DNA of 64,000 bases from Magnolia sinica (Eukaryota > Streptophyta > Magnoliopsida > Magnoliales > Magnoliaceae). The stretch spans positions 76,226,862 through 76,290,861 of the forward strand of contig NC_080584.1 of assembly GCF_029962835.1 (NCBI RefSeq), in the 5' to 3' direction. The notes beneath the pieces are model-generated. The model was not told where the DNA came from. It made no database searches and worked only from the letters and a program-made list of their open reading frames with translations. Shown piece by piece: positions 23,230 through 64,000 of the stretch (within the stretch, counting starts at the first letter, position 1; each line of letters begins with the position of its first letter). The translations under genes were made by a program, and so were the position numbers.

Positions 23230-26200
23230 AGATTGTTCTATTTTTTCCTTTATATATATATATATTTTAAGAATAAAATTTTCATTAAAAGGGGCAAAAC
23301 TTTATAGCGCTGGATACATTCGGGCTTCCCCGGGAGAAAAAAATTACCTGGGCGAAGCCTATTGTGACTACACAGGAAAAATGACTTTACACCTAGGAAT
23401 ACCCTTTAGGAAATCTCTCTGAAAAAAAGGACCGAGAGGGGCCTACCAAGAGGAAAAGAAAAGCATCTAATGAAACTAAACAGGAGGGGCAGCGCCTACC
23501 TGCCCAACGAGGACTACGTAATAATGCCTAGCCCCACTTTGTCAAGCAAAACCAGACTTCGAATAAGAGGTGGGAGCTCAGAAGCATGCTCATAAATAGA
23601 GAGGGCCTGTTGATCGCTTCCCATTCGGGCCAGCCCATTCGCTGGGGAATTCCCTTCTCGTAGAACATGGCAGAAGGAAAATTGGCCTTTGCTTTTGATT
23701 TTCTCTATCCAGGACACCCAATACCTCCAGTGCCATGCTACCTGGGACTTCCCATTCATTAAGTCGATACCATCTTTGAGTCAAATTCAACCAACACCTT
23801 GATCAGGCCCCTATTCAAGCAGACAGTCAAGCCGTCCCAGATTGCTCTTAGCTTAGCAATGTTGTTTGAGCCCAACCCATTGCCAATCGAGAGAGCAAAA
23901 AGGAATTGGCCTTTCTTCCCTGTACAAATACCTCCACCCCCTACCGGCCTTGGATTCCGTTTGGATAACCGGTCGACATTCAGCTTGCACTAGCCTGCTA
24001 TCGGAGGAATCCACTTTACCATATTTGTTGCCATCCTTGGAGGGGATCTATCCCTAGCACCTGGAAGGTGAGCTCACTAACCATGGAATTGACCTTGGGC
24101 TTGGGGAGGTCGTGGCTCAAATTTTTAATCCACTAGATCACGCGATGGATGATCCTAGACGACTGGATTTCCATCCTGTCAAATCTAACTTCATTTATAC
24201 TTTTCCAGAACTCCCACAGAATGATGCTTGGGGCCAACCTGCGTAGGGTTGCAATGTCACCCCTAAGAGATGCAGCAAGCGACCAACTATGCAACTTATC
24301 CTCCACTGAAGGATTTTCCATAACCGCAATGTTGAAAATGGTCCTAAAGTGTTGCCAAACATCCCCTGCCAGGTTACCGAAAAGGAAAAGATGGGTGAGG
24401 GATTCCTCTGTTGGATGTTAATCCCCAGCCGCCTCACAAAAACACACTTCGAAGCTAGTGTGATCCATCTAGACTAGATTCTACTATTCGACGAGATTGC
24501 ACCTTGCAGAAGCCTTCGAATGAAGCATTTGATCTTGGGCGGCATTTTGGAATGCCACACCCAACCTACCTAACTTCTCCTCCGCCCACCGGCTCTGCAG
24601 GCTTGCCACGCCGATTTCACTAAGAACTCACCAGATGGTACAAGGGGCCAAAATATGAGTTAGCGCCCTCTGAGGTTCAGAATCCTCCTTGGAAGACGAA
24701 GTCAACAACATCATGGGGGGGATTGGAGAAGATCATGAAAGAGGGGGAAGGACCAATGGGGGCCAAGAAGTCCCTAACTTTTAAGCTCTGCAGGTGATGC
24801 TTCTCATGACAATACGGATAAGCATGGCCCTCCTCACTCGAGAGAGACATTGCGCCTTCCAACCCTTAATACGGGCCACTATCTTGTTCTGCAAATTTTG
24901 AAAATCTAACCTTTTAATCCTGCCTCTAGCAGATAGGTTTCCCCAGAAGATGACTTGGGGATACCCAGGCTGCACTCAATTGATTTAATCCCAGAGAAAA
25001 GGGACGGGCTTTTGCTATAGTTAACTAACTGTCCATAAGTCGATTGGAACGAGTCGAGGAAGATTTTCACCTCTCTGATGAATGAGAATCCTCCATTCAG
25101 GAATAGGAGTGTGTCGTCAACATAGAGAAGGTGGGAGATGAGGGGGCAACCCATCTTGAGTTTGAACGGGAGGTAGTCTCCCCTATCCATAAGTGACTTA
25201 AAAGTTCTACTGAGGACCTCCGCAGCTAGAATAAACAAACTAGTGGAGAGCGAGTCTCCCTGGTGGAGGCCCCGGGAGTATTTGAAGAATCCCGCTACTT
25301 CCCCATTAACTAGGATGGAGAACCACTTGTTTGCCCAACATTTCTCCACCAGCTCGACCCATTTGTCACCAAAATCGAAGCACTTGAGAGCTTGCTTAAG
25401 GAAGTCTCATTTCACTCTATCATATGCTTTTTTCAAATATAATTTCACCACAATATTACCTCATTGAACCTTTTTATTTATTTCTCTAAACATCTCCTGT
25501 GCTAGAGCGATATTTTCTATTATGAACCTTCCCTTAACGATGGCGCCTTGTTTATGGGGATATAAGGGATGGCAGCACTTAATTCAATCCTGCGGTTAAG
25601 ATCTTGGAGAAAATCTTATGACCATAGTTACAGTGGCTAATCGAGTAGAAGTCGGAGAAGGAGGCTGGGACTGCCTTTTTAGGAATCAAGCAAATAAGAG
25701 AAGAGGAGAAAGCACGGGGCATATCACCCCCTTGAAACAGATGATTCATCGCCTTATAGAGGTCCTTCCTACCATGTGCCAGCAAGAGGTAAAAAATGCC
25801 CCAGAAAAGCCGTTCAGGCTTAAGACCCCATCTTTTGGAAGAGCATTAACAACTCTTTGCACCTCTTGTAGGGATGGAAGGGCCAGAATGAAAAAATTTT
25901 CTTCATTGGATAGAAGCTTCGGAATATGTTGTAATTCATTGGGCGATGTAGCTGAACCTTCGGACTTAAAAGCTACCTTAAAGAATTTTACTGCTTTTAC
26001 TTTAATGTCATTAGGATCTTGGATTACTTGTCCAACTGCACTTTGATCGACCTGATTTTTGCTCTCCAATCCTTTTTGAAACTGAAGCATGAAAGTATTT
26101 TATGTTCCTATCTCCCTCATGCAACTAAGATTTCTCGATTTTCGCTTCCAGAAAATTTCTTCTATCAATTCCATACTAGCCAAGTACTATTTTGCATCAT

Positions 26201-28009: not shown

Positions 28010-31000
28010 TTTTTTTTTTTTTGAACACAATGGGTACTAAAAAAAAAGCAATTTTCATTGAAACGGGGGAGAAATTACAATAATTCGAGCAGCCCTGGAA
28101 AAGAAAAAGATCCATAGAGCGCCTATCATATCCATATATAAAACCCACCCCTGAAGATCTACCTAAATGGATTCCCTAATATCACCTAGAGCCACCTTAT
28201 CTAACAGGAATAATCCCCTAATATTAATGGAAAGATCCTTCACCTGGTTAAAGAGACTCCTGGATTGATTTTTTGAACCTAATCTGACAAGCTCGTCCGC
28301 TTGCCCATTCCCTTCTCTCTGAATGAGGGAGATGATAAAATTACCCTTTTTCTTAATCTCCTCAATCCTCGCTAACCAATACCTCCATTTCCAAGTCGGA
28401 TTGGAGGATCCCATAAAAGAATCCACAACAAATTTGGAATCAGATTCGAGAATAACATGATTGAGACCATAGGAAATGTTGAAGACCATATCATCATAGA
28501 TAGCTCTCAACTCAGCCCTATTATTCGAACCATGACCATATCCTAAAGAGAAGGTGAAAATAAAATTGTCGGACGAGTTTCTGCAAATGCCGCCCCCTCT
28601 AGCCAACCCAGGATTGCCAGACGCTGAACCATCGATGTTAATTTTAACCCAGCCCGGGCCAGGGTTAACCCATTTGACAATTTTGAAGGATTTGGCAGGG
28701 GATGGCTGGACAGGGATCCCCAGGCTTTGGGAAATCAGAACATGAACCATTTTCTTTGGGTTTGGGTTAGGAAGATCGCCGCCGATTCTCACTAGATGCC
28801 ATCTGCTTTTGCTAACAATAGTGCTAACTAACGGTTGCGTTACGGGCTTTCCAGATTTCCCAGAAAATCAAGCATAGGGTTATACGACTTAGGTTTGAAG
28901 AGTAGCCTCCCCAAAGATAGGAATGCCACTACATTAGCAGCCTGCCTACAATCGATGAAGAAGCAAAGCAGGAAATGGAGAAAATACCTGAAAAGATTCC
29001 CCAAACCGAGGTGGCCAGCGCTCCAAAGATGAATAGGTGGGACAAAGATTCTGATTTCGGGAAATTTTTTTGCTGATTAATGCAACAAACACATCTGGAA
29101 GCAATGTTGATTCCTTTGTTTTTGATTCTATCGTCAACTGGGATCGCCCCTGGATCAATTTTCACATGAAAACAGAGATCTTAGGAGGCAGCTTTGAGTC
29201 CCAAATCCACTTGGCTTAGAGATACTCCTGACCTCTAGTCCTGCACACATTCCATTTGGATTTAATAGAGAATTGCCCCAAGTGGTCATGCCGCCAGACA
29301 CGCTGGTCTGGCTCATCGGTTGTGCAAAAACCTCCCTTGATGATTTGATGCATCACGTCATCAGGAAGTAGCGCCTCCATAGGGGAGTGAGGAATGGGCC
29401 CATTGGAGTTTTTAATGTCGTTAATGTTCAACTAAATAGGATTAGCTGGGATTGGATGAGGAATCTTATCAGCCAGCGGGCCTAGACCAGTCCAATTACT
29501 TTGCCAGATATTTATCGAGCCTTAAGCCACCTTCCATTGGAAATTGTTTTCTAGGAAAGGGAAGAGATTGGCAATGCTCTTCCAGAGGGAGGAAGAATTA
29601 GCTAGAGGGGTGTAAATAGTTGACAAAGGGGAGTTCTAGCCATATTTTGAAGATGCGAAATCGGCCCACAAGCTGCTGCCAGTGCTGGAGAAAACGGACT
29701 AGGCCATCTTCATTTTGAAGGCTATCATTACGTCTTTTAATTTCCTTATACTAAGCCCTCCTTCTTCTTTAGGCCGAGAAATCTTGCTCCAGTTAAGCCA
29801 GTGAAGTTTTCTCTTACCTTCGTGCCAGCCCCAGAAAAAATTGGCGAAAGATGCTTCCATCTTAACCAGAGTTTGGGAAAGATAATGGCAGCAACCATTG
29901 TATGAACTGGGATTCCGCTGAGCACATGATTAATCAGCATGCTTCTGTCAGCCTGAGAGGGATATCTGGCCTTCCAACCTTGGATTTTGGACTCGATTTT
30001 GTCGATCAAGGGCTGATACACCGTACTTATAACATTACCTTTAATCAAAGGGACCCCCAGGTAGTTGAATGCAGAGGTTGATTTGGGGATCCCAAGGATC
30101 TTCTTAATGTCACACACCCTCCCCACCGGAATGTTGGATGAGCAGTGGAAACAACTTTTTCAACGATTGATTTTTTAGCTGGATGCTTCTTGATATTCGG
30201 TGAAGAAATCTGCTGCCGCTATGAGAGAGCTGCGCCCACCATTGAGGAAGACAACCGTGTTGTCAGCATAAAGAAGGTGCGAGATTTGTTTGCAGCTTTG
30301 CTTAAGTTTGAAAGGCTTATAGGAACCAGCTAAGACCAGGGCCAAGAAGCCTTTGCTTGACACCTCTGCAGTTAGGATGAAGAGGCTTGGGGATAACGGG
30401 TCCCCTTGCCTCAAACCTCTAGAAGATTTGAAGAAGCGTGCGCCTTCCCCGTTGATTGAAACCGTGAACCAATTATTACACCAACACTTTTCAACCATAT
30501 TTATCTAGTTTGAGCCAAAGCTGAATTGGGATAAAAGCTGCTTGAGAAAATCCCATTCTAGTCTGTCATATGCTTTTTCTATGTCTAATTTAAGGACAAC
30601 ATTTTTGCCTTGGACTTTTCTATCAACTTCTCGAAACAACTCTTGCCCCAACGCAATACTTTTAGCAATTGAGCGACCTCTAACAAAGGTGCCTTGTTCC
30701 AGCGAAATCAACTTGGGGAGTAGCGTGGCCAGCCTGATAACAATGACTTTTGCGAAAATTCTATATACAAAGTTGCACAAGCTAATAGGCCTGAAATCGG
30801 AGAATTTCTTGGAGGCTTCCGTCTTTGGGATCAAGCAAATAAGTATAGAAGTAAATGCTTTAGGCATCGCATCACCTTGGAAAAGATCGACAACCGCTTT
30901 GTGAATGTCAACTCCCACAATTTCCTAGCTGCTTGAATAGAATGCACTAAAGAAGCCATCCAATCTAGGCGCTCCATCTTTGGGGAGGGACGAGACACCC

Positions 31001-33339: not shown

Positions 33340-35500
33340 GAAAACAAAAATCTATTTTTATTTTTTATGCAACGGCCCCAGATCTATTCAATTCCAAAAT
33401 GGAGGATTTACAATTCGGGGAGGCCCAGAAAAAAGGATTGGGCCCGCCTATCATGAAGAACTGAACAGAAAGAAAACAAGTAAACTAACAGACTTGGCGG
33501 GCCCAACATGCAAGCTGCTAACGGCTGTGATGACGCCCCCTAGTCGCGCCTAACCCCACCTTAACGAGGAAAATCAGCCCTCTAATTGCGGGCGGGATAT
33601 CATCCTGGGAAGAAAAAAAATCATGGTTTTGTAACTCACTGCCGCACAGCGCCAGCGCATCAGCCAAAAATTTAGCTTCATGAAAAATATGTACAACACT
33701 AGTGTTATCCCGGCCCATGAGGGATTTTATCCTGCAAAGCTAGAAACTCCATTTCCAGCCTGGTTTCGCCTCTCCCCTGAGAACATCCACCACCAATTTC
33801 AAATAAGATTCTAGGATGGCTTTAACAACACCCGGTCGGCGGCACAAAGCTAGGCCATCATGGATTGCCCGAAGCTCAGCACCGGTGTTGGTACCCTGAC
33901 CATATGCTGCTGAAAATGTGAACACCACGTCGCCCTTCTCATCTCTACAAATCCCGCCCCCACTTGATGGTCCCGGATTCCTGAGAGACGACCCATCCAC
34001 ATTTAACTTGAACCAAGAGCTGGGTGGCCTGTTCCAACGGATGACCCAGGATGGCGCAGGAGATGAAGTTGCCGATCCCGTTGACCCTGCCACAGATACC
34101 CTGGCAGTCTGCTGATCAAAACTAGCACCCATCGGTTGGACAAGAAGATAGAACCACCTAGAGATGTTGAAAATCAGCTCCGCACTGGAGCAGCGACGAT
34201 CATCATGGACTGCGCTGTTTCTGGCCTTCCAAAGCTCCCAGCAAATGATCAAAGGGGCGAGCCTCATCTCAATCGACTGGCGACCACAACTAGTGAGGGC
34301 ACTGCACCATTGGCGCAGCCGAGATTCTACAGACTGGGCCGACATCACGTTAATGCTTAACCTTCTCCCTATCTGGTGCCAAGTGTCTGACACCCACTTG
34401 CTGTCTAGAAACAAGTGAAATCTAGATTCCGTATTTCGTGGCCCATCTCCGTAGCACACGTAGGCCGACACCATCAGGATACCCTTTGATTGAATTGCCT
34501 CATCAACTGGGATCGCATTTTGCAAGAGTCTTCACATAAAGAGTGAAATTTTAGGTGGCAGCTTTGCATTCCAGATCCATTTCGTCCACTGTTGGGGCTG
34601 GTTATGAGCTCTGCAGACCTCCCAGCTAACCGTGAATCTACTTAAAGCAGTTTGGGGCCATATGAAGGAGTCTGGACCCTATGATGTGCAAAATCCTGAC
34701 TGAAAAATGTAGTCTACCACCTGTTGTGGCAGGAAACCGAAAACAGAGGATGGTGGGTGAGGACCAAAAGGCCCCAAAAACTCCATAACGGTCATACCTT
34801 CCAGCTGGACAGGAATCTGCGGCAGAACAAGGTCCGCGAGGGGTCCTAAACCTATCCAGTTTTTAAACCATAAGCTGCAGTTTCCTACCCCAATCATTGT
34901 TTGCACCTGCGGTAACGTAATCGGCAATTGGGCCACAATCCTCCTCCACAACGGAGATGCATAAACTGCAGGCTGGTTTGCGCCAGTCTCCCTACCATTA
35001 CACCTGTATTTCGCTGACATAAAGGATGCCCATAAGCTGCCCTTTTTGGCAAAAAAATGCCGACTAGGCCATCTTGAGTCAGAAACATCGCATTAAGTCC
35101 TTCAATCGACGAATGTCCAGCCCACCTTCCTCTCTAGGCGTTGCGATCGATTTCTAGTTCTTCCAATGGAATTTTCTCTTGCCCTCCGTCCACCCCTAGA
35201 AGAAGTTAGCAAAAATGCCTTCTAATGCAGAAAGAACTTTGATAGGGATGTGTGTAGCTGCAAGGGAATGCACCGGAATGCTTCCCAGAACGTGCTTAAT
35301 CAAAACCATTCTCCCTGCCTGAGAAAGCACCCGAGCCTGCCAACCTACAATACGGCCTGCAATCTTATTCACTAGCGGTTGAAAATTGCTTGACACCGCT
35401 CTCCCTGTCGTCATCGGAACCCCTAGATACGAAAAGGAAGAGGAGGCCTTAGAAATGCCAATAAGTCTCACTTTACAGGTATGTTTGCATGACACAGTAC
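33340..35500 (-). mobile_element. LINE D fragment inside the CACTA element (end of reverse transcriptase, zinc finger, RNase H, 3' UTR)
   Basis: On the minus strand from 35495: the reverse-transcriptase tail (FSYLGVPMTTGRAV, IVGWQARVLSQAGRMVLIKH), a middle region (35020-34679), then a long frame 34525-33740 that covers the zinc-binding/linker region (RLAPLIICWELWKARN) and most of RNase H (WFKLNVDGSSLRNPGP, NTGAELRAIHDGLALC). The RNase H end is at 33718-33518. The 3' UTR contains CCTATCATGAAG like the other LINE tails and ends in an A-rich tract near 33345. The copy is 5'-truncated and a different subfamily member from A-C. No target duplication was found. Confidence 0.85.
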
Positions 35501-36877: not shown

Positions 36878-37381
36878 ATTGTTGCTCCACGTGAATATGC
36901 GGAGAGAATCCAGTGTCCATCAGCCCTGCATTCTCGATAGCTTCCACAAAGTCTGCGTAACTACCCAGGTCATGGTTCTGCTGCTCCTTTCTTCGCTGGG
37001 TAGGACGGCATTGAAATCACCGCCAATAGCCCAATGCCCCGACGTGCTTCTAGCCATCGAGGCAAGCTCATCCCTCAACATTCTTCTTTGAATCTCGGAA
37101 CATTTTGCATACACAATAGACAGATGAAACATGAGCTGAGAGTTAGGAATTACAATCTTGAATGATATCATCTGATTGGATTGTTAAACAACTAATACTG
37201 AAAGGTTGGTATTGCAAAAGAATCAGATTTTGCCACCAGCCAAAACATTTGAGAGAGAGGAGTGGAAGCGTAGTTTTAGACCCATTTCCACTCTTCTCTC
37301 CTCTCTAGCCATTGGCTCTAAAATGGCAAGACACTAGGGATTATGATTACGAATCATCCTGCGGGCTGTCTTGAGGGTATC
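36878..37381 (-). mobile_element. LINE C, middle piece of the endonuclease
   Basis: On the minus strand from 37381: LKTARRMIRNHNP, LEPMAREERRVEMGL, LHL-type region with FHLSIVYAKCSEIQRRML, then HWAIGGDFNAVLPSEERSS, ending at the CACTA insertion. These are the central active-site blocks (Glu of LEP, Asp of GDFNAV) of the LINE endonuclease. It has in-frame stops and a one-base frameshift just before the WSNN block. It is bounded on one side by the CACTA element and on the other by the LTR element. Confidence 0.85.
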
Positions 37382-39501
37382 TGTTGAGGGTCAAATATTG
37401 CATATCAGACCCAGTTATTGCATGGATTTACAAGCATGATACCGTTTAATAGCCTGATTTAATCGTGTTTGTGATGCAGAGTGTATTTACAAGCATGAAC
37501 TGAAAAAGGGTGCTTAAACCATGGATTTAACGCTCTGATGACACCCAAGGCAAGGGACGGACTCCAGGGGACCAAGATCGATGGAATTACACACCAGGGA
37601 TCCGAGGAAATCAAGCCATCCACGTTAAAGAGGCCCGAAATTGGTGAAAAATGCAAGATCACATAGTTCCCGCCATCTGATTGGCCCAAAACTTTATACA
37701 TGGCCTGAGGGCCATAAATTAACCGTACATATCAAATTTTAGCCCTCAGATCACTATGGAAGTGCCCCAACTGACAGATCAGCCCATAAACCATTGATTC
37801 TGGGCCCACCTGATATCTGGAACTGTCTCAACTTTGGTCTCGGCGGTTTAAATAAGATGAGGAAACAAATGGATGGTTTGGATTTTGATAGACTATCACA
37901 ATGGGCCCCGTATATACAGCGCGTGTACAATGAGGTTACACGTGCAGCTGCGTACCGTGTAAGGCGGGTCAGCAGCGCTGACCCGCATCTCCTTCCCAAA
38001 TACGGCAGTAGCCGTTTCACGCGGCGAGATGGACGGACGGTGTCCGTTTTTGCGGACGCTAGTGGGCCCCACACATTGTTCCAGTAGGAAATCCAAACCA
38101 TCCATCGTGTAGAGGGCCTCAACTACTACAAAACCTTACTGAGATTCTACACCCATGCATGCACATGTGCGCGATACAAAGGCCATAAACAGGCGGTCCT
38201 GCGACGTTCAAAATGATTTTTGGGGTGATTTCTTCTCTGGGCCGCGTCAATGGACGTTCAAAACCACCCATTCTTGACCGAAATTTCGTTCTGAATCCAA
38301 TGGACGGGGTGGATTTTCCAGAAAATACCTCTATGGGGCCCACCGATCATGTCAGTGCCGGACGTGCGAAAGGCTACGCACGTCCGCGAAATCGGACTTT
38401 CCAGGCAGTTGTGGCCCACCATCTTTGATCATATGGTAGATCTGAACCGTCCATCGTGTAGGCCAGCCAAAACACTTCCAAGAGACGTTGATTTTACAGA
38501 AATAATGCAAGGAACGCGAGAGTTATGAAGCCCCGAACTTAGCTGCGAAAAGGCTTTCGCTGCGCGTGCGATAGCTTCCCAAATCCGATTTTCACTACTC
38601 CAAAAGCTATAAAAAGAGTTCCAAACGTGGAGAAGAGGTCATGCTTGAATAGGGGACGTCAGATAGAGAGAGAGAGAGGCAACAGGAGGGCTCGTTTTGG
38701 AAGGCTTCAACGTGGGATGTTCGACAGGGAGCTAGGAAAGTAATTTTTATTTTTTTTCTTTTTTCTATTCTTTTCTTTCTATTGTATTTGTTTTAGATCC
38801 AGCCCATTCATGTTGGGCTGAACCTCTTAGCTAGGGCTAAGAGGTGAAGCTTGCAGCGTGATGGGGGACCTTTTTGCTTGTGCCTTTTGTTTAGACTGAA
38901 CTGATGTTGATTTTAGTTGATTATTAAAGGAATATTTTTCTTAGTCTTTAATGGTCTGTTGTGACTGAAATTACAATGGGTCTGCAATGGCTTTGAATAT
39001 TTCTTTTCCCCTTTTAATGTTTATGACGTCAGGAAGCCCTGTTGTTCACCATCGTCTCATGGGCATGGTCGGATGGCGATACCCTTCCTAATCTTCATAC
39101 ATTATTGATTGGTTGGTAATTAGTTTAATCCTGTTGTTTGCTTTGTCTCCTGGGCATGGTTAGATGATGGAATCCATTCTAATTCATATACCTTTCATCT
39201 TGTGAAGACTAGATCAAGTAGGTTCAGTTTGATTTCCATGATTCTTGATGCAGGCAAAAGATCTCCCTGATCCCTACAAGTGGATCCTCTGAATCCCTAG
39301 TTTCTTTCCTTTAAATTCCTTAAAGTTTTAGATAATTATTCCATAATTATTCCTTAACCTCTGTTTGGTTTAGAACACATCTTAGTCTAGTTCTAGTTCT
39401 ACTTGGTTTCAGATAACGTATAGGTATCAGTCCCTGTGGATTCGACCTCGATCTTACCGAGTTTATTACTACATCACAACCCTATACTTGGGGAGTGAAC
39501 A
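37382..39501 (+). repeat. 5' LTR of the non-autonomous element
   Basis: 2120 bp, TG...CA. It matches the 3' LTR along its whole length with roughly fifty single-base differences and a few small indels counted by eye, about 97-98% identity. Many differences are C/T or G/A. A TATA box TATAAAAAG is at 38609-38617, about 1.2 kb from the LTR start, so U3 is unusually long. A (GA)n tract follows at about 38660-38676. Confidence 0.95.
38609..38617 (+). promoter_or_regulatory. TATA box of the 5' LTR
   Basis: TATAAAAAG in the context CCAAAAGCTATAAAAAGAGT, conserved in the 3' LTR at 44463-44471. Transcription of the element would start shortly downstream. Confidence 0.65.
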
Positions 39502-39507
39502 AGTTTT

Positions 39508-39525
39508 TGGCGCCATTGCTGGGGA
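39508..39525 (+). promoter_or_regulatory. Primer-binding site
   Basis: TGGCGCCATTGCTGGGGA begins six bases after the 5' LTR end. Athila-type elements have TGGCGCCGTTGCCGGGGA here, complementary to the 3' end of aspartate tRNA. The two differ at two positions, both transitions. Confidence 0.8.
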
Positions 39526-40090
39526 CTGATGGTTACGATTCTTTGAAATTAATTAGTTTTAGAATTAGTTTGAGATTAGGATTTTACTAACTTTAGTTTT
39601 AGATTTTTATTTCTATTTGATTTTTAGAATTAACTTGTTTCCTGTTTTGTAGGATCCTGACATAAACTTCTAAATTGGTAATCCTTTTCTAATTCCTCTA
39701 CTTTTTCTTCTTCTTCTCTCTCTTTTTTTTTTTTTTTTTTAGGATTTGAGTTTTGAAAATTTTCTAGTATTTTTATTTTATTTTATTTTTAGGAACTAGT
39801 TTATTTTTAAACTTTCATCTTTTGTTTTTAGAAACTAGGTTAATTATTGCCCTTTTTAGAAATTCTTTCTAATTTTAGAAACTAACTCATCTTCCATTTA
39901 TTTTATTTTTAGGCTTCGATTTTCTATTTTAGAAACTTTCTAATTCTATTGTTTTCTTTTACAGGATCTTAACATAGGAACCTCTCATTTGGTACCTTCT
40001 TTCTAACTTCTCCTCCTCTTACTTTCCATACTTCTGTAGGATCTTTTCTTCTATTTTTCTTAGAATTAGACTCAGAGTTAGGGTTCTACC

Positions 40091-41878
40091 ATGGAAGCGT
40101 GGGTACATGCATATGCCGAGATGGATAAGAGATATTGGGGAATGCCTGAGGATTGTGGAATTCAACGTATACCTCAAGATTTTTCTCCATCAAGAACAGA
40201 CATTGAGAACCGACTAAAACGTTATGTTCCATCTGTTAATAGGGCTGTATATGATCGTAATTATGGAAACGAGGATTATTATCAACCATCATATTCTCCC
40301 ATGTATGATCAGTATGACTATTACCAGGGGAAACATCAAAATTTGGAAGATGAACCAACTATATGTTATAATGATTATCCTCTTGGATACCCTACCATTG
40401 ATATCCAACCAGAAACAATCCAAGAGGATTCAGTTCAGCGTAACCTGGCCTATCTCACGGAAATGAGAAAATCGTTAGAAGCGCTTAATTCGCGCCTTGA
40501 TAAGATAGAGGAGGCTCGGTTATCTCAATCACAATTCATTCCTGAAATACAATGCGAGAAAAGTGATCCTAACTCGCTTTGGAAGAACTCTGGAATTACA
40601 AATGAGGAATTGGATTCTATCAATGAGCATATGGTTCAATTTCCCGATGCGTTGATCTCTATGACTGTTCAAAGGAATGGTCAAGATGTGTGAGTATCTT
40701 TCAAATACAGTGATGATGACACACTTTCCTCACATGACACACAGGATCTCAATGATGACGTAGAGGTTAGTTTTTTCAAACCTCAACCGAACTTAGGCAT
40801 AGAATGTGAGGAGAGCAACCCCATCCCAAGTGTGTACTGCACGGAATTAGACAATGATGCTTATTTGGATGATGATCATGAATATACAGCCCAAAGTCCC
40901 CTAGAATCAATCTCAAGTTTGGTCCAGGTCAATGATCAAGACATACATGAAGTGGTCGGTCATAATGAGCCACTCCCCTCACCTGACATGTCTGATTTTA
41001 AGGTGGAGGATGAGCCCCTTACAATCGACCCTTCTAACTCTTGTGAAACATGTTTGGACCACTCCTCTAAATTAAATGATGATGTGATTCCGGAGAAGGA
41101 CGAGTTGCTCGCTACGACCTTGGAAATTGAAACCACTAAGTTGAGGCCACCATCTGAGCTGTACACGTTTGACAATTCAACACCTCGATTGAGTAGTTTC
41201 AATGAACAAAGTGATCACATCGATGCTTCCCCTATTGATTTTCAATCTATCTGTGTAGGGCTGGAGCAAGAGAGCACACCTCTGTTTACCTTTAAAGACA
41301 ATGGATTCCTTGGGCAGATCATCGCAAGTTTTAATGTGGAAAATGAGTCACCCTCAGCTGAATGTCCCAACTCTTTTAATGATTGTTTGGCACACTTTGC
41401 AGATTCAAATGATCCCATGATAAGAGACATAGTGAATGCCTTACAAGACAACATCTCGGTAGTCATCACTGACCGAGAGAACCCTTACTTTGAAGCCCCT
41501 TCTTCCACAGATCCTGAATATTTTCCATTAAGGGAGGAGGAGCTGAAAATTGAACCGAAATCTGACACTTCGGAATGTGTTGAGACTACATTACTTCTTG
41601 TGAAGTTTTCTAAACTTTATCTACCTGTAGTTTCTGATTCACTATGGGATACTAACGAAGAAACTTCTTCTGTCATAGGTGAATCGTATATGCTATGGAT
41701 ACCTCAAGCACTTCAACAGAAAATCTCTTATGAGGTACATAAGTTTCTCTGGAAGGTCATGCTTCAAGGCGTCCAAGCCTATTGCAAAAAGGGTTTTTGG
41801 ATGATCCTGTTGAGGAACTTACTGAGAAACTTATCAAGATATTGGCCGAAAGAGGAACCTTGCGGCTTGACTCAGTAG
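40091..41878 (+). pseudogene. Unknown 595-codon reading frame of the LTR element, broken by one TGA
   Basis: I do not recognise this protein. The frame starts at an ATG in good context (CTACCATGGAAGC) and runs to TAG at 41878. It is interrupted only by TGA at codon 201 (40691-40693). Both halves are in the same frame with no other stop, so they were probably one protein. The N-terminal half has a Tyr/Asp-rich stretch (YYQPSYSPMYDQYDYYQ) and a short heptad-like helix (LTEMRKSLEALNSRLDKIEE). The rest is acidic and low in hydrophobic segments, with no zinc knuckle, protease, polymerase or integrase motif and no clear membrane helix. It could be a diverged gag-like or element-specific protein. 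Long survival of the frame suggests past selection. GTG-TGA-GTA could derive from a CGA codon by C-to-T change. Confidence 0.7.
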
Positions 41879-43231
41879 TTTTTCTTGCTTTCTTAGGACT
41901 AGGGTAGTTGCTTTATTTGTCTGGCTGAAGACGGTAAACTTAGCACTCCTGGGAGGCAACCCAGCTCTTCATTTCATTTCGTTTTTATCATTAGTTAGTT
42001 CAATGTTTGTGGGTAACATTACTGCAAACCCTCACGAGACTACAACTCGTCCACTAGGGGCAACCTAGGGGTTTAAAGGCTTGTTGCATATGCTAAATGC
42101 AATCGAGAGCACCTGCGAAAGTGGTGTAGGTAGGATTTCATTTTTGTTATTTTTATTTTACTTTTGTTGGTTTCTCTCTTGTGCTGACCCGATCTTACGT
42201 AGATATCTTTGGAAAGCCTTTTGATTCTTTCGTCCAGGTATTATCTTTCCATCACTTCTCTTATATTTTTGTTGTCTCATGTGCATTGCATGCTTATTTC
42301 TTTTACATTAAGGACAATGTAGATTTTAGGTTGGGGGTGGGAGATTAGGTTTCCTAATCAGCATTTTCTTGGTCTTGAGCAAAAATTGTGAAATTTTTTT
42401 TAATTTTTCTGGACTTTCTTGTGAATTCGAAGGGATTTTGACGGCTATCTAGGGCAGTTGGAATTTCAAGATACGTGATGTTGGTAATTTAAGATGCTTG
42501 GATTCAGTATCTGGTGGATTTCATAGTTAAGTTTGAATTGTTAATCCAAAATTAGAAGTTATAAATATTGATTGAGTTATGATCTCACATGTCACATCTC
42601 GCTTTCACATTAAGGTTTCAGTTTGATATTGAAGGATTTATTTGGTACTCACTAAGATTGAAAGGAACCAACTTGAGAAATTGAAAGGATTGGGCGAATG
42701 GTCGACACCATAGGTTTGCTCCCTATAGGTGTAGATTTAATTCCCTATGAATGATATGTGAAAAAAAATTTGGGTGTACAGTCTTCATCATAGGTTTACT
42801 CCCTGTAGGTGAGGAATTGATTCTCCTCATTGGCGTTACTTTTAATGGAAAAATCAAAAACTGAAGGAATGAAAAGATGATCTATGAGGCAAGTTTTGGT
42901 TATCATGAATCTTCTTATTGGTTACCAGTGATATCCTGCAATAGAGAAGTGAATTTTAATGATGATAAGCTGAGATTACACTGTACGCTCATAGATCTCA
43001 ATGATTAGAATTTTTCTAATTAATGGAATAATACTTTGAACTTGATTATAAAGTTTACCGTGCGCTTGAGTTTAGGAGAGAGTAATATCCAACATTCATG
43101 AATCTGGAAATTCTCATATCTGGATTATTCTACAAAAAAAAATCACTCGAGTTTATAGAAAGTGTTTTGTAATTCTCAACTTACTTTTCGCATATTTTGC
43201 TCGGGACTAGCAAAATGCTGGTCGGGGGTTG
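41879..43231 (+). other. 3' non-coding interior of the LTR element with polypurine tract
   Basis: No open frame of note. It contains GGGAGGCAACCCAG at 41964-41977 and a purine-rich GGTTGGGGGTGGGAGA at 42329-42344, a possible second polypurine tract. The tract next to the 3' LTR is GCTGGTCGGGGGTTG at 43217-43231. A diverged pair of phrases (CATAGGTTTGCTCCCTATAG at 42711 and ATAGGTTTACTCCCTGTAGG at 42791) shows a local duplication. Confidence 0.6.
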
Positions 43232-45353
43232 TGTTGAGGGTCAAATATTGCATATCAGACCCAGTTATTGCATGGATTTACAAGCATGATACCGTTTAAT
43301 AGCCTGATTTAATCGTGTTTGTGATGCAGAGTGTATTTACAAGCATGAACTGAAAAAGGGTGCTTAAACCATGGATTTAACGCTCTGATGACACCCAAGG
43401 CAAGGGACGGACTCCAGAGGACCAAGATCGATGAAATTACACACCAGGGATCCGAGGAAATCAAGCCATCCACGTTAAAGAGGCCCGAAATTGGTGAAAA
43501 ATGCAAGATCACATAGTTCCCGCCATCTGATTGGCTCAAAACTTTATACATGGCCTGAGGGCCATAAATTAACCGTACATATCAAATTTCAGCCCTCAGA
43601 TCACTATGGAAGTGCCCCAACTGACAGATCATCCCATAAACCATTGATTCTGGGCCCACCTGATATCTGGAACTGTCTCAACTTTGGTCTCGGCGGTTTA
43701 AATTAGATGAGGAAACAAATGGATGGTTTGGATTTTGATAGACTATCACAATGGGCCCCGTATATTCAGCGCGTGTACAATGAGGTTACACGTGCAGCTG
43801 CGCACCGTACCGTGTAAGGCGGGTCAGCAGCGCTGACCCGCATCTCCTTCCCAAATACGGCAGTAGCCGTTTCACGCGGCGAGATGGACGGACGGTGTCC
43901 GTTTTTGCGGACGCTAGTGGGCCCCACACATTGTCCCAGTAGGAAATCCAAACCATCCATCGTGTAGAGGGCCTCGACTACTACAAAACCTTGCTGAGAT
44001 TTTACACCCATGCATGCACATGTGTGCGATACAAAGGCCACAAACAGGCAGTCCCGCGACGTTCAAAACGATTTTTGGGGTGATTTCTTCTCTGGGCCGC
44101 GTCAATGGACGTTCAAAATCACCCATTCTTGACCGAAATTTCGTTCTGAATCCAATGGACGGGGTGGATTTTCCAGAAAATACCTCTGTGGGGCCCACCA
44201 ATCACGTCAGCGCCGGACGTGCGAAAGGCTACGCACATCCGTGAAATCGGACTTTCCAGGCAATTGTGGCCCACCATCTTTGATCATATGGTAGATCTGA
44301 ACCATCCATTGTGTAGGCCAGCCAAAACACTTCTAAGAAACGCTGATTTTACAGAAATAATGCTAGGAACGCGAGAGTTATGAAGCCCTGAACTTAGCTG
44401 CGAAAAGGCTTTCGCTGCGCGCGCGATAGCTTCCCAAATCCGATTTCCACTACTCCAAAAGCTATAAAAAGAGTTCCAAACGTGGAGAAGAGGTCATGCT
44501 TGAATAGGGAACGTCAGATAGAGAGAGAGAGGCAACAGGAGGGCTCGTTTTGGAAGGCTTCAACGTGGGATGTTCGACAGGGAGCTAGGAAAGTAATTTT
44601 TATTTTTTTCTTTTTTCTATTCTTTTCTTTCTATTGTATTTGTTTTGGATTCAGCCCATTCATGTTGGGCTGAACCTCTTAGCTAGGGCTAAGAGGTGAA
44701 GCTTGCAGCATGATGGGGGACCTTTTTGCTTGTGCCTTTTGTTTAGACTGAACTGATGTTGATTTTAGTTGATTATTAAAGGAATATTTTTCTTAGTCTT
44801 TAATGGTCTGTTGTGACTGAAATTACAATGGGTCTGCAATGGCTTTGAATATTTCTTTTCCCCTTTTAATGTTTATGACGTCAGGAAGCCCTGTTGTTTA
44901 CCATCGTCTCATGGGCATGGTCGGATGGCGATACCCTTCCTAATCTTCATACATTATTGATTAGTTGGTAATTAGTTTAATCCTGTTGTTTTCTTTGTCT
45001 CCTGGGCATGGTTAGATGATGGAATCCATTCTAATTCATATACCTTTCATCTTGTGAAGACTAGATCAAGTAGGTTCAGTTTGATTACCATGATTCTTGA
45101 TGCAGGCAAAAGATCTCCCTGATCCCTACAAGTGGATCCTCTGAATCCCTAGTTTCTTTTCTTTAAATTCCTTAAAGTTTTAGATAATTATTCCACAATT
45201 ATTCCTTAAACTCTATTTGGTTTAGAACACATCTTAGTCTAGCTCTAGTTCTACTTGGTTTCAGATAACGTATAGGTATCAGTCCCTGTGGATTCGACCT
45301 CGGTCTTACCGAGTTTATTACTACATCACAACCCTATACTTGGGGAGTGAACA
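43232..45353 (+). repeat. 3' LTR of the non-autonomous element
   Basis: 2122 bp, starts TGTTGAGGGTC, ends GAGTGAACA. Its main indels against the 5' LTR are five extra bases (CCGTA duplication near 43806) and four fewer in the GA tract. The TATA box is at 44463-44471. Confidence 0.95.
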
Positions 45354-47990
45354 GTATCCAGATTGGCTACCCCTCGGGCATTCCAAATAATGACACTATC
45401 CATAAGTAATGTTCCCTGAGTTAATAGCCCTCCTCATTAGTCTTCTTATCCGACCGAACCATTCTACTGTAGTCATTCTAGCCTTAGACTTCAAAGCTTT
45501 CCTTCTTCCTGTTCTCTTTTTTCCTATTTTTTGAGATTTCCCAATCTGAGGAATCGCATTGGGTTCCTTGAAACAAACAATCTGTAGATGGTTTTCAATA
45601 GACTGGGTATCTGAATCAACCTCACTATTCTGAAAATCACTGTCTTGATCTTGCATCAGCGGATCAGAGTCTGGATCTGGCAGATCATCTCCATTGCTAC
45701 TGCCGTTCCTACTATTGGGGATGTGGTCCTCGCCTTGGGACAGGGCACATCCTACATCCAAAGTTCTATCATGGTATGAAGATAGATCAACTGTTAGGTT
45801 GAGAAGCTGTGTCTTCTATTGAGTCCAAATGGTGAGGATGAACAATCTTCCGTCTGTTTAGACTAGAGCAGTGGGGAAAATCTCTTTCCAATACTTGAAA
45901 AGAGGGCGATTTTAGCGATTTTTTGCTATCTTCTGCATGGTGCATAGGACTATTGGACAGCTCGTCATTTAGATCAAAAAAAATTGTTGGAGGATCTCTT
46001 GTTGGATGTCTCTTTGGACTCTGTCCTGTTGGATGCTGGGGGAGATGCTGGGCTACTGATGGGATAATACCAATTCCTTCCTGGCTATTAACAGTCATAG
46101 AGTTATATGCCTGATAGGAGATGGTAGCGAAGAGGGGACTTGGCTGACGTTCCTGGTATATAAACATTCCTCATCCAATCTGGGTAAAGTGCTATTGATA
46201 TCAACCGCAAGACTAATCGATGTGGACTGGAGGACCTTAGGCAAAAAGGCTGTTTGGTTGTCCTGACATCACCTAGAAGGTAGCAATGTGAATTGTTGGG
46301 CTGATATGGGGTTAAAATCTAACCCTGCTTGTCTTTGCACTTCCTCATTACCTAGACTGGTTGGAGTTGGCATGGGGGATGGAATCTGGCTCGTATTTCT
46401 GATATCCGGTCCTATGACATTCCTCTTTTGGATCATTCCACTAATCTCTTCTCATGGGATTCTGGTTGGGGACTGCCTATTACTAAGCACACTAGATGTA
46501 GGGTCTGCCTACGGTTTCGTTGATGGGTCCCTATTCCCATTCAATGTGACTGCTGCATTTCGTCGAGCATATGGAGTATGCGTAGGGCTAGCATGTATCT
46601 GATCGATGATAGAGATTATCTTAGAAATCTGAGGAGTCCCATCAATGTTCTCCTGACTTCTGTTGGTTAGAGACAATCAATTTTTGTTTAGAGGACTTCT
46701 CTGTATTTCTTGAATTTCGGAATGGGGGTCCTGATTGTGGGAACCATACTCTTTTACAATTCGTTGAACACCTAGTGAGTGCATTATGTTTATCAGCCCT
46801 TGCTCTTCTTCTGATGGAAGCACTACCGTCTGAACTTCAGTAGATTTGTTGCTAGTTGTGACAGCTTCTTTGGGCACGGTCCTATTATGCATAACATATT
46901 GCTCCCCTTCTTGGGACATCTGAATCGGTTCCAGCTTAGCCGAAGTAAAATATTCTTTATCAACAACAATGAGGTTAATTGGTTTGTTGGTTTCTATCCC
47001 CAAATGCTATTTGATTTTAACCCTAGCAAACATTTGAAATATTCCATACCTCGTGCAAGTGTCAATTTGAATCACATTCCTGAAAACATTGCCAAGGTCA
47101 ACAATAACTGACTCCATCCATGCATGTGCCGATCTGCCAGACAAACGGATCCAGATCCCTTCCTCAAATGGGTTGAAATTTGGAGACCAGGGTACCAGAT
47201 CTACTAGACCCATAGCTTGAATCAAAGTGGAATCAGAAAGGAAATCTGTTAGCTCATCTCTAGTTTTGAAGACTATTAGGAAATGGGTGTACGACAGACG
47301 GGCAATGTGGACATTGGAGGCTGCAAATCTGGAATCCTTGAGCCCCTCCACCAGATGCAGAATCGAAATTGATTTGTGTGACACCGTTCCTAGCAGTCCC
47401 AGTTCTAGATCTTGTAGTTTCTCTCCACCGATTTGGGGTTTGCCACCGTAGTTGCTGTTGTGTTGTGTATCTTTGGAGCTGTAGTGGAGATCTTTTCCCA
47501 ATCTCTGCGATGAATTAGTGTTGGGGTAACTATTTTTCTACCCTCCACTTCACTTTGGACTTGTGGACCCTCTGATTTTCCTTTAGGAGTCCAAAGCCTA
47601 GGGTTCGCGTCCTTAACCGAGACAATCCTGCCGTTGATTCAGTGACCATCCAGCACCCCTTTGGCTGCCCTCGCGTCATCTTCATACCAGAAACGAACGA
47701 TAGTGAATCCTCTGGATTGCATTGTTCCTGGGAATTGGGGGATATACACCTCAGCTACCCTCCCATATCTCTCGAAAATCTTTATCATGTCTTCTCAAGG
47801 GCAGTCGAAAGGAATATTCCCAGCAAACAGAGTGAATCCTCTTCCCCGTCGTACGTCCTTCATTCTTTGAAGAGTTTCCAGAGCGCGATTCCTCCTGCAG
47901 ATTCTGTTTTCCTTTGACCATAGGAGACAGGTGCCCCCTAGAAGGAGCACTCTCATGAGGGCGACCCCTCATTCACCCCTCATGCGTTCG
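45354..47990 (-). mobile_element. LINE C, proximal part: ORF1 with RRM domain and start of ORF2
   Basis: On the minus strand ORF1 starts near 47972 (MRGRPHESAPSR). It contains an RNA-recognition motif at about 47860-47625 with RNP2-like TLFAGNIPF and RNP1-like RGFTIVRFW, then a DUF4283-like region at 47501-47007 (SYTHFLIVFKTRDEL, GIWIRLSGRSAHAW). A long polar tail ends in a basic stretch (KKRTGRRKALKSKAR) at 45761-45396. ORF1 is broken by frameshifts and at least two TGA codons within the RRM. Its last codons overlap the start of ORF2: ATGGATAG at 45396-45403 holds both the ORF2 start ATG and the ORF1 stop TAG. ORF2 begins MDSVIIWNARGVANLDT and is then split by the LTR element. An RRM in ORF1 is the mark of the BNR subclade of plant L1 elements. 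Confidence 0.88.
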
Positions 47991-49716: not shown

Positions 49717-58785
<9,069 letters not shown>

Positions 58786-58870
58786 TGAAGCGAGTGGTAC
58801 AGATTGTTTGCTAAACTGGCGGGTCGATGAATGATATGGAAGGAACCTTTAGAATCATTTCTTCACAGCA

Positions 58871-61369: not shown

Positions 61370-64000
61370 TTAGGTTATAGGTTAGGTTATAGCTTTAGGG
61401 AATTGAGAATAGGTTAAGGTTTAGGTTTAAGAAATCAGGTTCTGGTTCAGGTTCGGTATCGGGTTTAGGTTTGGGTTTTCAAGTTTAGGTTTAGGTTTAG
61501 GTTAAGGAGTTGAGATTAGGATTAAGTGTAGGTTTAGGTTTAAGGATTTGAGATTACATTTAGGTTTTAGGTTTAGGTTATATGTTTAGGTTTAGGTTAT
61601 AAGTATAGGTTACAGGTTTAAGTTTAAGTTACGTTATAGGTTAAGGTTTAGGGAATTGAGAATAGGTTAAGGTTTAGGTTTAAATTAGGTTATAGGTTAA
61701 AGTTTAGGGAATTGAGAATAGGTTAAGGTTTAGGTTTAGGAAAATCGGGTTCGGGTTTAGGTTTGGGGTTTCAAGTTTAGGTTTAGGTTAAGGAGTTGAG
61801 ATTGGGATTAGGTGTAGGTGTAGGTTTAGGAATTTGAGAATACATTTAGGTTATAGGTTTAGGTTATAAGTGTCAGTTATAGGTTTAGGTTATAAGTGTC
61901 GGTTATAGGTTACACCTTTAGGGATTTGAGAATAGGTTAAGGTCTAGGTTTAGGAAATCGGGTTCGGGTTCAGGATCGGGTTTAGGTTTGGGTTTTCAAG
62001 TTTAGGTTTAGGTTTAGGTTAGGGAGTTGAGATTAGGATTAGGTATAGGTTCAGGTTTGGGGATTTAAGAATACATTTAGGTTTTAGGTTTAGGTTTAGG
62101 TTTTAGGTTTTAGGTTTTAAGTTTAGGTTAAGGTTATAGGTTAAGGTTAGGTTTAGGTTATAGGTTATAGGTTATAGGTTATAGCTTTAGGGAATTGAGA
62201 ATAGGTTAAGGTTTATGTTTAGTTTTGGGAAATCGAGTTCGGGATTGGGTTTAGGTTTGGGTTTTCAAGTCTAAGTTTATGTTTAGGTTAGGGAGTTGAG
62301 ATTAGGATTAGGTGTAGGTTTAGGTTTAGGGATTTGAGAATACATTTAGGTTTTAAGTTTAGGTTTTAGGATTTGAGAATAGGTTTAGGTTAAGGTTGTA
62401 AGTATAAGTTATAGGTTAAGGTTAAGGTTTAGGTTTCGGCTATAAGTATAAGTTTTGGGATTTGAGAATAGGTTTAAGTTAAGGTTATAAGTCTAGGTTT
62501 AGGTTATAGGTTATAGGTTAAAGTTTAGGTTTAGGAAATCGGGTTCGGGTTCGGGATCGGGATCGGGTTTAGGTTTAGGTTATAGGTATAGGTTTTGGGA
62601 TTTGAGAATAAGTTTAGGTTAAGGTTACGAGTCTAGGTTTAAGTTATAGGTTAAGGTTTAGGTTTAGGCTATAAGTATAGGTATAGGTTATAGGTTAAGG
62701 TTAAGGTTTAGGAAATCGGGTTTGGGTTCGGGATCGTGTTTAGGTTTGGGTTATAGGCATAGGTTTTGGAATTTGAGAATAGGTTTAGGTTAAGGTTGTA
62801 AGTATAGGTTATAGGTTAAGGTTAAGGATTAGGTTTCAGCTATAAGTATAGGTTTTGGGATTTGAGAATAGGTTTAGGTTAAGGTTATAAGTCTAGGTTT
62901 AGGTTATAGGTTAAGGTATAGGTTTAGGTTATAGGTATAGGTTTAGGTTATACGTTAAGGTTTAGGTTTAGGAAATCGGGTTCGGGATCACGTTTAGGTT
63001 TGGGTTATAGGCATAGGTTTTGGGATTTGAGAATAGGTTTAGGTTAAGGTTGTAAATATAGGTTATAAGTTAAGGTTAAGGTTTAGGTTTCGGCTATAAG
63101 TATAGGTTTTGGGATTTGAGAATAGGTTTAGGTTAAGGTTATAAGTCTAAGTTTAGGTTATAGGTTAAGGTTTAGGTTTAGGTTATAGGTTAAGGTTTAG
63201 GTTTAGGTTATAGGTATAGGTTTAGGTTATACATTAAGGTTTAGGTTTAGAAAATCGGGTTCGGGTTCGGGACCGGGTTTAGGTTTGGGTTATAGGTATA
63301 GGTATTGGGATTTGAGAATAGGTTTAGGTTAAGGTTATGAGTCTAGGTTTAGGTTATAGTTTATGGTTTAGGTTTAGACTATAGGTATAAGTTTCGGTTA
63401 TAGGTTATGGTTTAGTTTTAGGAAATCGGGTTCGGGTTCAGGATCGGGTTTAGGTTTGGGTTATAAGTATAGGTTATAGATTATGAGAATAGGTTTAGTT
63501 AAGGTTATGAGTCTAGGTTTAGGTTATAGGTTTTGTTTTAGGTTTAGGTTATAGGTATAGGTTTAGGTTATAGGTTTAGGGAATGGTTTAGGAAATCGGG
63601 TTCGGGTTTGAGATTGGGTTTAGGTTTGGGTTATAGGTATAGGTTTTGGGATTTGAGAATAGGTTTAGGTTAAGGCTGTAAGCATAGGTTATAGGTTAAG
63701 GTTAAGGTTTAGGTTTAGGTTTTGGCTATAAGTATATGTTTTAGGATTTGAGAATAGGTTTAGGTTAAGGTTATAAGTCTAGGTTTAAGTTACAGGTTAA
63801 GGTTTAGGTTTAGGTTATAGTTATAGGTTTAGGTTAAGGTTATATGTTAAGTTTAAGGTTATAGGTTTAGGTTTAGGTTTAGGTTTAGGTTAAGTTTATA
63901 GGTTTAGGTTTAGGTTAGGTTATAGGTTATAGGTTTAGGTTTAGGTTATAGTTATAGGTTTTGGGATTTGAGAATAGGTTTAGGTTAGGTTATAGGTTAT
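61370..64000 (+). repeat. Degenerate telomere-like satellite with higher-order units, runs off the right edge
   Basis: The plus strand is almost entirely GGTTTA, GGTTATA and GGTTAA words, a degenerate version of the plant telomere repeat TTTAGGG with one G usually replaced by T, so the main word is the hexamer TTTAGG. Larger landmarks recur: AAATCGGGTTCGGG at about 61432 (diverged), 61742, 61955, 62230, 62536, 62713, 62973, 63252, 63423 and 63593, and GGGATTTGAGAATAGGTTTA near each of them. Landmark spacing is about 170-310 bp, so the array has a variable higher-order unit. There is strong strand asymmetry (G/T-rich plus strand). Confidence 0.9.

What the first reader, a model, noticed from the sequence alone, without database searches (positions are those of the whole stretch)
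40091..41878. Long reading frame of unknown function in a retroelement that has no gag-pol
The 7972-bp LTR element has no polymerase, protease or integrase, yet keeps a 595-codon frame broken by a single TGA (codon 201). Non-autonomous plant LTR elements usually lose coding capacity quickly. A retained element-specific protein with a Tyr/Asp-rich N-terminal part, a short coiled-coil-like helix and an acidic remainder may be a new trans-mobilisation or packaging factor. I recognise no family.
Basis: partly seen in the sequence, partly recalled or inferred. Interest (0 to 1): 0.72.

Follow-up and report, generated by a model that had tools for sequence, protein, structure and literature searches.

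The report
Collapsed gag-pol frame in defective retrotransposon
A defective plant jumping gene, which must borrow its relatives' enzymes, still carries a long open reading frame; the frame looks like joined leftovers of the relatives' own gene, and it seems to be kept in frame while the amino acids it spells drift almost freely.

Summary
In detail: element 37382-45353 (7972 bp, LTRs 97.4% identical, duplication GTATC), no enzymes found, and a 595-codon frame with one TGA at codon 201. Copies open to the end exist. At 17 of 100 listed primer sites (2,491 in the genome), 7 carry relatives of the frame and 10 a Gag. The main Gag family also has RT/RNase H (integrase by eye) and shares this element's LTR ends, leader and 3' region: the likely helper. 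The frame is not a captured gene. Codons 299-357 are homologous to the helper's acidic protease-RT linker; codons 46-163 weakly resemble its Gag tail, in the same order. It looks like a gag-pol collapsed by in-frame deletions. In seven unbiased relatives every aligned indel is a multiple of three (0 frameshifts per 588 differences; 24 per 1,342 in helper copies), but amino-acid constraint is weak or absent (omega 0.83-1.10, once 1.69), where helper gag-pol gives 0.23-0.61. Stops are not significantly depleted on a fair count. I prefer a requirement for translation in cis; a loosely constrained disordered protein or a relic frame remain possible.

The parts
37377..37381 (+). target site duplication, left copy (GTATC); right copy 45354-45358
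37382..39501 (+). 5' LTR, TGTTGAGGGT...GTGAACA
   Evidence: 97.4% to the 3' LTR; its last 270 bp are 90% identical to the LTR end of a Gag-bearing relative (L057)
39508..39525 (+). primer binding site TGGCGCCATTGCTGGGGA (tRNA-Asp type, recalled)
   Evidence: 1 match in window, 0.01 expected; 2491 sites of the wider pattern in the genome, 0 for the reversed control
39502..40090 (+). leader; ATG-poor (1 ATG in 583 nt, 8 in shuffles), ends in ACCATGG context
   Evidence: 387 bp shared with a helper at 76% (L057)
40091..41878 (+). 595-codon frame with TGA at codon 201
   Evidence: relatives
40226..40579 (+). codons 46-163: Tyr-rich stretch and coiled-coil-like helix resembling the helper's Gag C-terminal region (suggestive only)
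   Evidence: 4.6 and 6.5 bits; score 32.6, probability 20.5%, reached by 4 of 100 column shuffles
40985..41161 (+). codons 299-357: homologous to the acidic linker between protease and reverse transcriptase of the helper
   Evidence: 14-25 bits in 5 of 7 helper loci scanned; hhalign E 1.6e-6, score 49.7 against a shuffle maximum of 24.9
41321..41470 (+). codons 411-460: second, diverged copy of the same linker motif
   Evidence: (in copy L009): codons 300-349 against 411-460, 30% over 50, E 4.6e-5
41879..43231 (+). 3' region up to a G-rich tract before the 3' LTR
   Evidence: 77.6% over 1377 bp to the stretch after the integrase-like part of a helper (L063)
43232..45353 (+). 3' LTR
   Evidence: first 565 bp 76.5% to the helper 3' LTR

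Best explanation
A defective, helper-dependent Ty3/gypsy element (Athila type, by recall). Shown: it shares LTR ends, primer site, leader and 3' region with a pol-bearing family of the same genome; the space held there by gag-pol is held here by one 595-codon frame; part of that frame is homologous to a linker of the helper polyprotein. Inferred: the frame arose by in-frame deletion of the folded domains (capsid, zinc knuckle, protease, RT, RNase H, integrase), which left and partly duplicated the disordered linkers. Shown within limits: lineages keep the frame (indels in threes) although the amino acids drift. Inferred mechanism: the LTR transcript must be translated over a long distance in cis (ATG-poor leader, ATG in good context, ribosomes clearing the RNA and sparing it from nonsense-mediated decay) before helper Gag packages it and helper RT and integrase copy and insert it. 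[quoted passage not shown] Copies recombine, so frames are mosaics.
For: Helper: (7 frame and 10 Gag sites among 17 sampled). Origin. Frame kept: in unbiased relatives 5 distinct indels, all multiples of three (3, 9, 3, 3, 3), against 53 of 209 in the flanks of the close group (Fisher 0.0013); 0 frameshift gaps in 588 differences against 24 in 1342 for helper copies measured the same way with an open reference (Fisher 3.6e-4 without L049; 0.008 if the RT pair and L069 are left out too); in L056, 3 gaps per 212 differences in the frame against 5 per 49 in its 3' region (Fisher 0.009). Sequence not kept: omega 0.83-1.10 without third-position excess in the five relatives re-tested (L042, L044, L047, L049, L056), while 13 helper comparisons give 0.23-0.61. 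Translation set-up: 0-1 upstream ATG against 8-9 in shuffles in two leaders.
Against: No expression or translation data. Stops are a weak witness: 10 against 27.3 expected, but the reference L009 was chosen open, so about half of the differences cannot show a stop; against half the expectation 10 is not low (P 0.20, or 0.36 without L049), and for the older blocks 0 against 3.35 gives 0.035. Observed over expected stops is 0.42 here and 0.70 in helper copies, so the frame is no worse kept than gag-pol, no more. Weak constraint is not excluded: older blocks give 0.74, 1.09, 0.71 (together 0.78, P 0.10) and the L037 block, left out of the sum because it shares its old stretch with L034, gives 0.59 (P 0.09). 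The ATG-poor leader is inherited from the helper. The Gag-tail likeness is weak. The origin of codons 164-298 and 461-595 is not shown. The last 30 codons give a lower NG86 ratio (0.24 against 0.50 overall between groups). Two of 31 copies do carry a private 1-bp deletion (L028, L030).
Confidence: 0.43

Rival explanations
1. A disordered acidic protein works in trans or in cis (for example by binding Gag or RNA in the particle), and only its length, charge and Tyr-rich start matter, so the sequence drifts while frame and composition stay.
For: Net charge -61, -68 and -75 in L056, L009 and L035, and 12-16 Tyr in the first 170 residues; charge-class changes 0.265 against 0.364 expected, p 5e-5, with helper gag-pol at expectation; omega somewhat below 1 in older blocks; first 40 codons little changed in the diverged copies; low NG86 ratio in the last 30 codons.
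Against: The best neutral control, private changes, also lies below the model (0.304 against 0.357; against the old changes Fisher p 0.26). Mean BLOSUM62 score of replacements equals the neutral expectation (z 0.3). The helper's protease-RT linker is acidic too, so composition could be inherited.
Confidence: 0.29
2. No selection at all: the frame is a relic of gag-pol that happens still to be largely open.
For: Amino-acid changes near neutral; private changes in the close group fully neutral (148 non-synonymous, 77 synonymous, 18 stops); stops in unbiased relatives not significantly below a fair expectation.
Against: No frameshift in the aligned parts of unbiased relatives at 5-23% divergence and all indels in threes, against common and mostly out-of-frame gaps in flanks and in helper copies; two old lineages without shared stops.
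Confidence: 0.19
3. A sequence-specific element protein (packaging or mobilisation factor), evolving fast.
For: Long open frame in many copies; some segments change little; in the close group the frame is far more alike than its flanks.
Against: The close group was picked by its match to the frame, and in it synonymous sites are conserved as well. In unbiased L056 the frame is 86.8% identical and its 3' region 91.3%. Omega 0.83-1.10 and no third-position excess in five relatives. No family match.
Confidence: 0.07

Closest known systems
RLG_Quinta / RLG_Cereba pair of Triticeae (PMC11302176, passages seen)
   Same: A non-autonomous gypsy element shares primer site and LTR ends with a full-length partner, keeps one long frame that includes a part of unknown function (DUF1), and recombines.
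   Different: Quinta's frame still encodes a recognisable GAG; this frame shows no capsid or zinc knuckle, and part of it matches the protease-RT linker.
RLG_Sabrina / RLG_WHAM of wheat (PMC9744471, passages seen)
   Same: High-copy elements lacking RT and integrase, dependent on a partner.
   Different: Semi-autonomous Sabrina keeps GAG-Pro; in shorter variants that gene is replaced. The passages seen report no frame kept open without its protein being conserved.
TR-GAG elements (PMC8704663, passages seen)
   Same: LTR element with a single frame and a presumed helper.
   Different: The TR-GAG frame is a full GAG, which is not found here.
Retrosat2 ORF0 (PMC3485330, abstract and sections 9, 10, 14 read)
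   Same: Long element-encoded frame of unknown function and fast amino-acid change in a gypsy element.
   Different: ORF0 sits beside a complete ORF1 in an autonomous element, with mean Ka 0.26 and Ks 1.65, i.e. clear constraint.
Coronavirus defective interfering RNAs (van der Most et al. 1995; only the title seen, in the reference list of PMC8255065)
   Different: RNA virus; no evolutionary relation. The likeness is in how it may work.

Membership tests
Non-autonomous partner of an Athila-like Ty3/gypsy family | LTRs, primer site and target duplication present, no RT/integrase | tested here: met
   frame halves scanned with Pfam, the whole internal region only by motif scan and by DNA against helper pieces
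Non-autonomous partner of an Athila-like Ty3/gypsy family | same primer site, LTR ends, leader and 3' region as a pol-bearing family in the same genome | tested here: met
   (pieces from several loci; no whole helper was read)
Non-autonomous partner of an Athila-like Ty3/gypsy family | placement in the Athila lineage by RT phylogeny | not tested
   the name rests on recall of Gag, primer site and 3' motifs; Pfam shows only Retrotrans_gag, RVT_1 and RNase H
TR-GAG | single frame encoding a complete GAG (capsid PF03732) | tested here: not met
   no PF03732 in the window halves or 10 open copies; 2 of 4 helper Gag stretches scanned do match
RLG_Quinta-like semi-autonomous element | non-autonomous frame contributes GAG | tested here: not met
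Athila env-like protein | frame downstream of pol coding for an env-like protein | tested here: inconclusive
   the frame lies between leader and 3' region where the helper has gag-pol, and its best match is a pol linker; no env profile was on hand
DI-RNA-like frame (works like, no kinship) | translation needed, sequence not | not testable with these tools
   indel and omega patterns agree; no functional data

The most novel reading that the evidence does not exclude
Selection acts on the readability of the element RNA and not on the protein: a high-copy plant retrotransposon follows the rule reported for coronavirus defective interfering RNAs, keeping a gag-pol-derived frame through some 20% divergence while its amino acids evolve at about the neutral rate.
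Probability: 0.35. Interest if true: 0.75.

Novelty: new variant of a known kind. Interest (0 to 1): 0.5.

Why it matters
Plant genomes hold many defective LTR elements that move with borrowed proteins, and what such an element must still keep is poorly known. Here one genome gives element, likely helper and matched control: at similar divergence the helper's gag-pol shows normal protein constraint, while the defective element keeps little more than its frame. That makes a cis requirement for translation testable, and it shows how a frame of unknown function can look conserved without encoding a conserved protein. It also warns that dN/dS from simple counts (0.43-0.52 here), or from copies picked by their match to the frame, can pass for purifying selection.

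Tried and rejected
A conserved protein from the identity cliff: in 21 copies (the window plus the 20 best frame matches) mean pairwise identity per 100 bp is 0.96-0.99 inside the frame and 0.73-0.95 in the rest of the internal region. Rejected as proof: these copies were picked by the frame, synonymous sites are conserved as well, and unbiased L056 shows the reverse. Purifying selection from NG86 dN/dS 0.43-0.52: rejected, because neutral private changes give the same ratio and transitions dominate.

A -1 frameshift site near 41795-41801, with the -1 frame running to 41907: rejected, because most of the 21 copies lack the slippery heptamer and their -1 frame runs on differently.

Selection on charge: significant against a codon model, not against private changes. 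The frame's N-terminus as Gag N-terminus: direct comparison fails (155 of 500 shuffles reach it); through relative L046 it is suggestive (1 of 500). RT or integrase pieces in the frame: nothing above 4.1 bits. Known families: none (weak names ignored). Structure prediction was never accepted. Paper searches listed no description of this element; most subscription journals are missing from that library.

Full report
WHAT IS THERE. The element runs from 37382 to 45353 (7972 bp), with LTRs 97.4% identical and the duplication GTATC on both sides. It lies in a 1.84-Gb genome with no name given. Its primer site TGGCGCCATTGCTGGGGA is at 39508-39525. The frame at 40091-41878 has 595 codons, with TGA at codon 201. 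In copy L009 the protein is strongly acidic (net -68) and Tyr-rich at the start, and no family match of note was found.

COPIES. Only the best 40 of 3332 candidates were scored: the window and 39 others at 96-97% DNA identity over at least 1771 of 1788 bases. Among 150 scored N-half matches 116 have no stop there, and 55 of these are open for at least 587 codons; among 105 C-half matches 75 have none and 55 are open that far. Of the window and 20 fetched close copies, 4 of 21 are open to the final stop; of 10 more diverged copies (L029-L038, taken from the two lists) 6 are open, counting L037 whose last codons lie outside its aligned stretch. Intact copies therefore exist.

A TRAP. In the 21 close copies mean identity is 0.96-0.99 inside the frame and 0.73-0.95 in the rest of the internal region, with steps within about 30 bp of the start and stop codons, and gap openings per kb per pair are 0.05 inside against 14-16 outside. 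This does not by itself prove a conserved protein. The copies were chosen by the frame. Changes private to one copy are neutral (148 non-synonymous, 77 synonymous, 18 stops), and synonymous sites are conserved too. Diverged copies are mosaics: L034 and L035 differ from the close group by 5-25% in codons 41-260 but by 0-8% elsewhere. In L056, found without using the frame, the frame is 86.8% identical to the window and its 3' region 91.3%. Recombination plus the choice of copies by the frame explains much of the step.

AN UNBIASED SAMPLE. The pattern TTTTTGGCGCCNTTGCNGGGGA occurs 2,491 times in the genome and never in reversed control form; 100 sites on one contig were listed. I read 501 bp, about 700-1200 bp downstream, at 17 of these 100 (about every sixth). 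Seven hold relatives of the frame (L042-L047, L049; matched DNA 79-95% identical) and ten hold Gag, eight linked by DNA likeness into one family and two into another. Of four Gag stretches scanned, L051 and L053 match PF03732, L039 and L040 do not; the rest rest on DNA likeness.

THE HELPER. Upstream of one Gag site (L057) the LTR end is 90% identical to the window element over 270 bp and the leader 76% over 387 bp; the second Gag type (L058) shares the leader at 68% and not the LTR. At 3.5-5.0 kb downstream of three Gag sites, two hold RT and RNase H (L060 with a 446-codon open stretch, Pfam; L059 broken, similar to L060) and one, by eye, another element (L061). Further downstream of the L060 site (L063) an integrase-like stretch (by eye, not scanned) is followed by the window's 3' region (77.6% over 1377 bp) and its LTR (76.5% over 567 bp). 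The family with Gag and pol thus has the same ends, leader and 3' region: the likely helper. The pieces come from different loci. The lineage name Athila is recalled, not tested.

ORIGIN OF THE FRAME. A profile of 10 natural open copies matches the helper linker between protease and RT in five of seven helper loci scanned (14-25 bits; no match listed for L068 and L069). Profile against profile gives E 1.6e-6 and score 49.7, against a maximum of 24.9 in 100 shuffles, for codons 299-357. Codons 46-163 match the Gag tail with score 32.6 and probability 20.5%; 4 of 100 shuffles reach that score (one reaches 137), so this is suggestive only. The first 110 residues of relative L046 resemble the Gag start (1 of 500 shuffles), and the start of the frame is clearly related to L046 (0 of 500), though not directly to Gag (155 of 500). 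The three anchors, two of them weak, are in the order of the helper polyprotein. The linker motif occurs twice in the frame (codons 300-349 and 411-460, E 4.6e-5). I infer a gag-pol reduced by in-frame deletions to its disordered linkers. Codons 164-298 and 461-595 are unassigned.

WHAT SELECTION SEES. The seven unbiased relatives were compared with L009 over eight aligned stretches: 412 non-synonymous and 166 synonymous differences and 10 stops. Indels are 3; 9 (shared by L044 and L049, which are 97% identical); 3, 3, 3: five distinct events, all multiples of three, against 53 of 209 in the flanks of the close group (Fisher 0.0013). There is no frameshift gap in 588 differences; helper copies, measured the same way against open references, have 24 in 1342 (Fisher 3.6e-4 with L049 left out; 0.008 if the RT pair and L069 are also left out). 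Within L056 the frame has 3 gaps per 212 differences and its 3' region 5 per 49 (Fisher 0.009). Parts of L045, L046 and L047 did not align and were not counted; L045 and L047 are broken by stops. Two other copies, L028 and L030, carry private 1-bp deletions.

STOPS, WITH A CAVEAT. A plain expectation is 27.3 stops for the 10 seen. But L009 was chosen open, so differences that arose on its side cannot show a stop. Against half the expectation, 10 is not low (P 0.20; without L049 0.36), and 0 stops in the older blocks against 3.35 gives 0.035. Observed over expected is 0.42 for the frame without L049 and 0.70 for helper copies (29 of 41.6), again with open references. So stops agree with a kept frame but do not prove it; the indels carry the case.

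AMINO ACIDS. Omega per unbiased stretch is 0.83-1.10, and 1.69 for L043 with 23 differences. Older blocks give 0.74, 1.09 and 0.71, together 96 non-synonymous to 46 synonymous, 0.78 (P 0.10); the L037 block, not independent, gives 0.59 (P 0.09). Weak constraint is therefore possible. As a control, the same count on 13 helper comparisons gives 0.28-0.60 for gag-protease, 0.23-0.61 for the Gag start and 0.30 for RT, with P below 0.02 in 12 of 13 and more third-position changes in most. The method sees protein constraint where it exists; in this frame it sees little.

MECHANISM. The two leaders examined have 0 and 1 ATG where 8-9 are expected, and the frame starts in the context ACCATGG; the leader is shared with the helper, so this is permissive only. 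I prefer a cis effect: element RNA that is translated over a long frame survives and is packaged by helper proteins. The first rival is a disordered acidic protein with loose sequence needs; charge-changing replacements are rarer than a codon model predicts but not rarer than among neutral private changes. The second is a relic frame, against which the indels speak. None is demonstrated.

KNOWN KINDS. Closest are the Quinta/Cereba and Sabrina/WHAM systems, TR-GAG and Retrosat2 ORF0. In what I read of these, the element keeps a Gag or a constrained protein, or the gene is replaced; this one keeps a frame in which no Gag capsid is found. As a way of working it is nearest to coronavirus defective interfering RNAs, for which I saw only a title.

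Noticed in passing
G000 C2:56277607/56283800, C4:77860587/77866621, C6:100291097/100297123, C14:66523025/66529123, C2:136053868/136059896, C18:41020200/41026359: Pairs of frame copies on one strand about 6.0-6.2 kb apart, the size of one LTR plus one internal region: possibly tandem arrays LTR-internal-LTR-internal-LTR (not read).
   Followed up: no
L034, L035, L037 codons 41-262; L029, L030, L033, L036, L038 C-terminal third: Mosaic frames with sharp changes between low and 15-25% divergence, pointing to recombination (template switching) between subfamilies.
   Followed up: partly
window 41795-41907: A -1 frame over the last codons spells a natural-looking helix and runs past the stop in many copies; possibly an older C-terminus.
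   Followed up: partly
window 24906-25406, 28163-28867, 33740-34531 (minus strand): Open stretches that look like LINE reverse transcriptase and RNase H in the same window (by eye, not searched).
   Followed up: no
window 57466-58848 (minus strand): A 460-codon open stretch that looks like an S-domain receptor kinase ectodomain (by eye, not searched).
   Followed up: no
window 61436-63858: Family of degenerate direct repeats with extreme GC skew (0.84 in 62001-64000).
   Followed up: no
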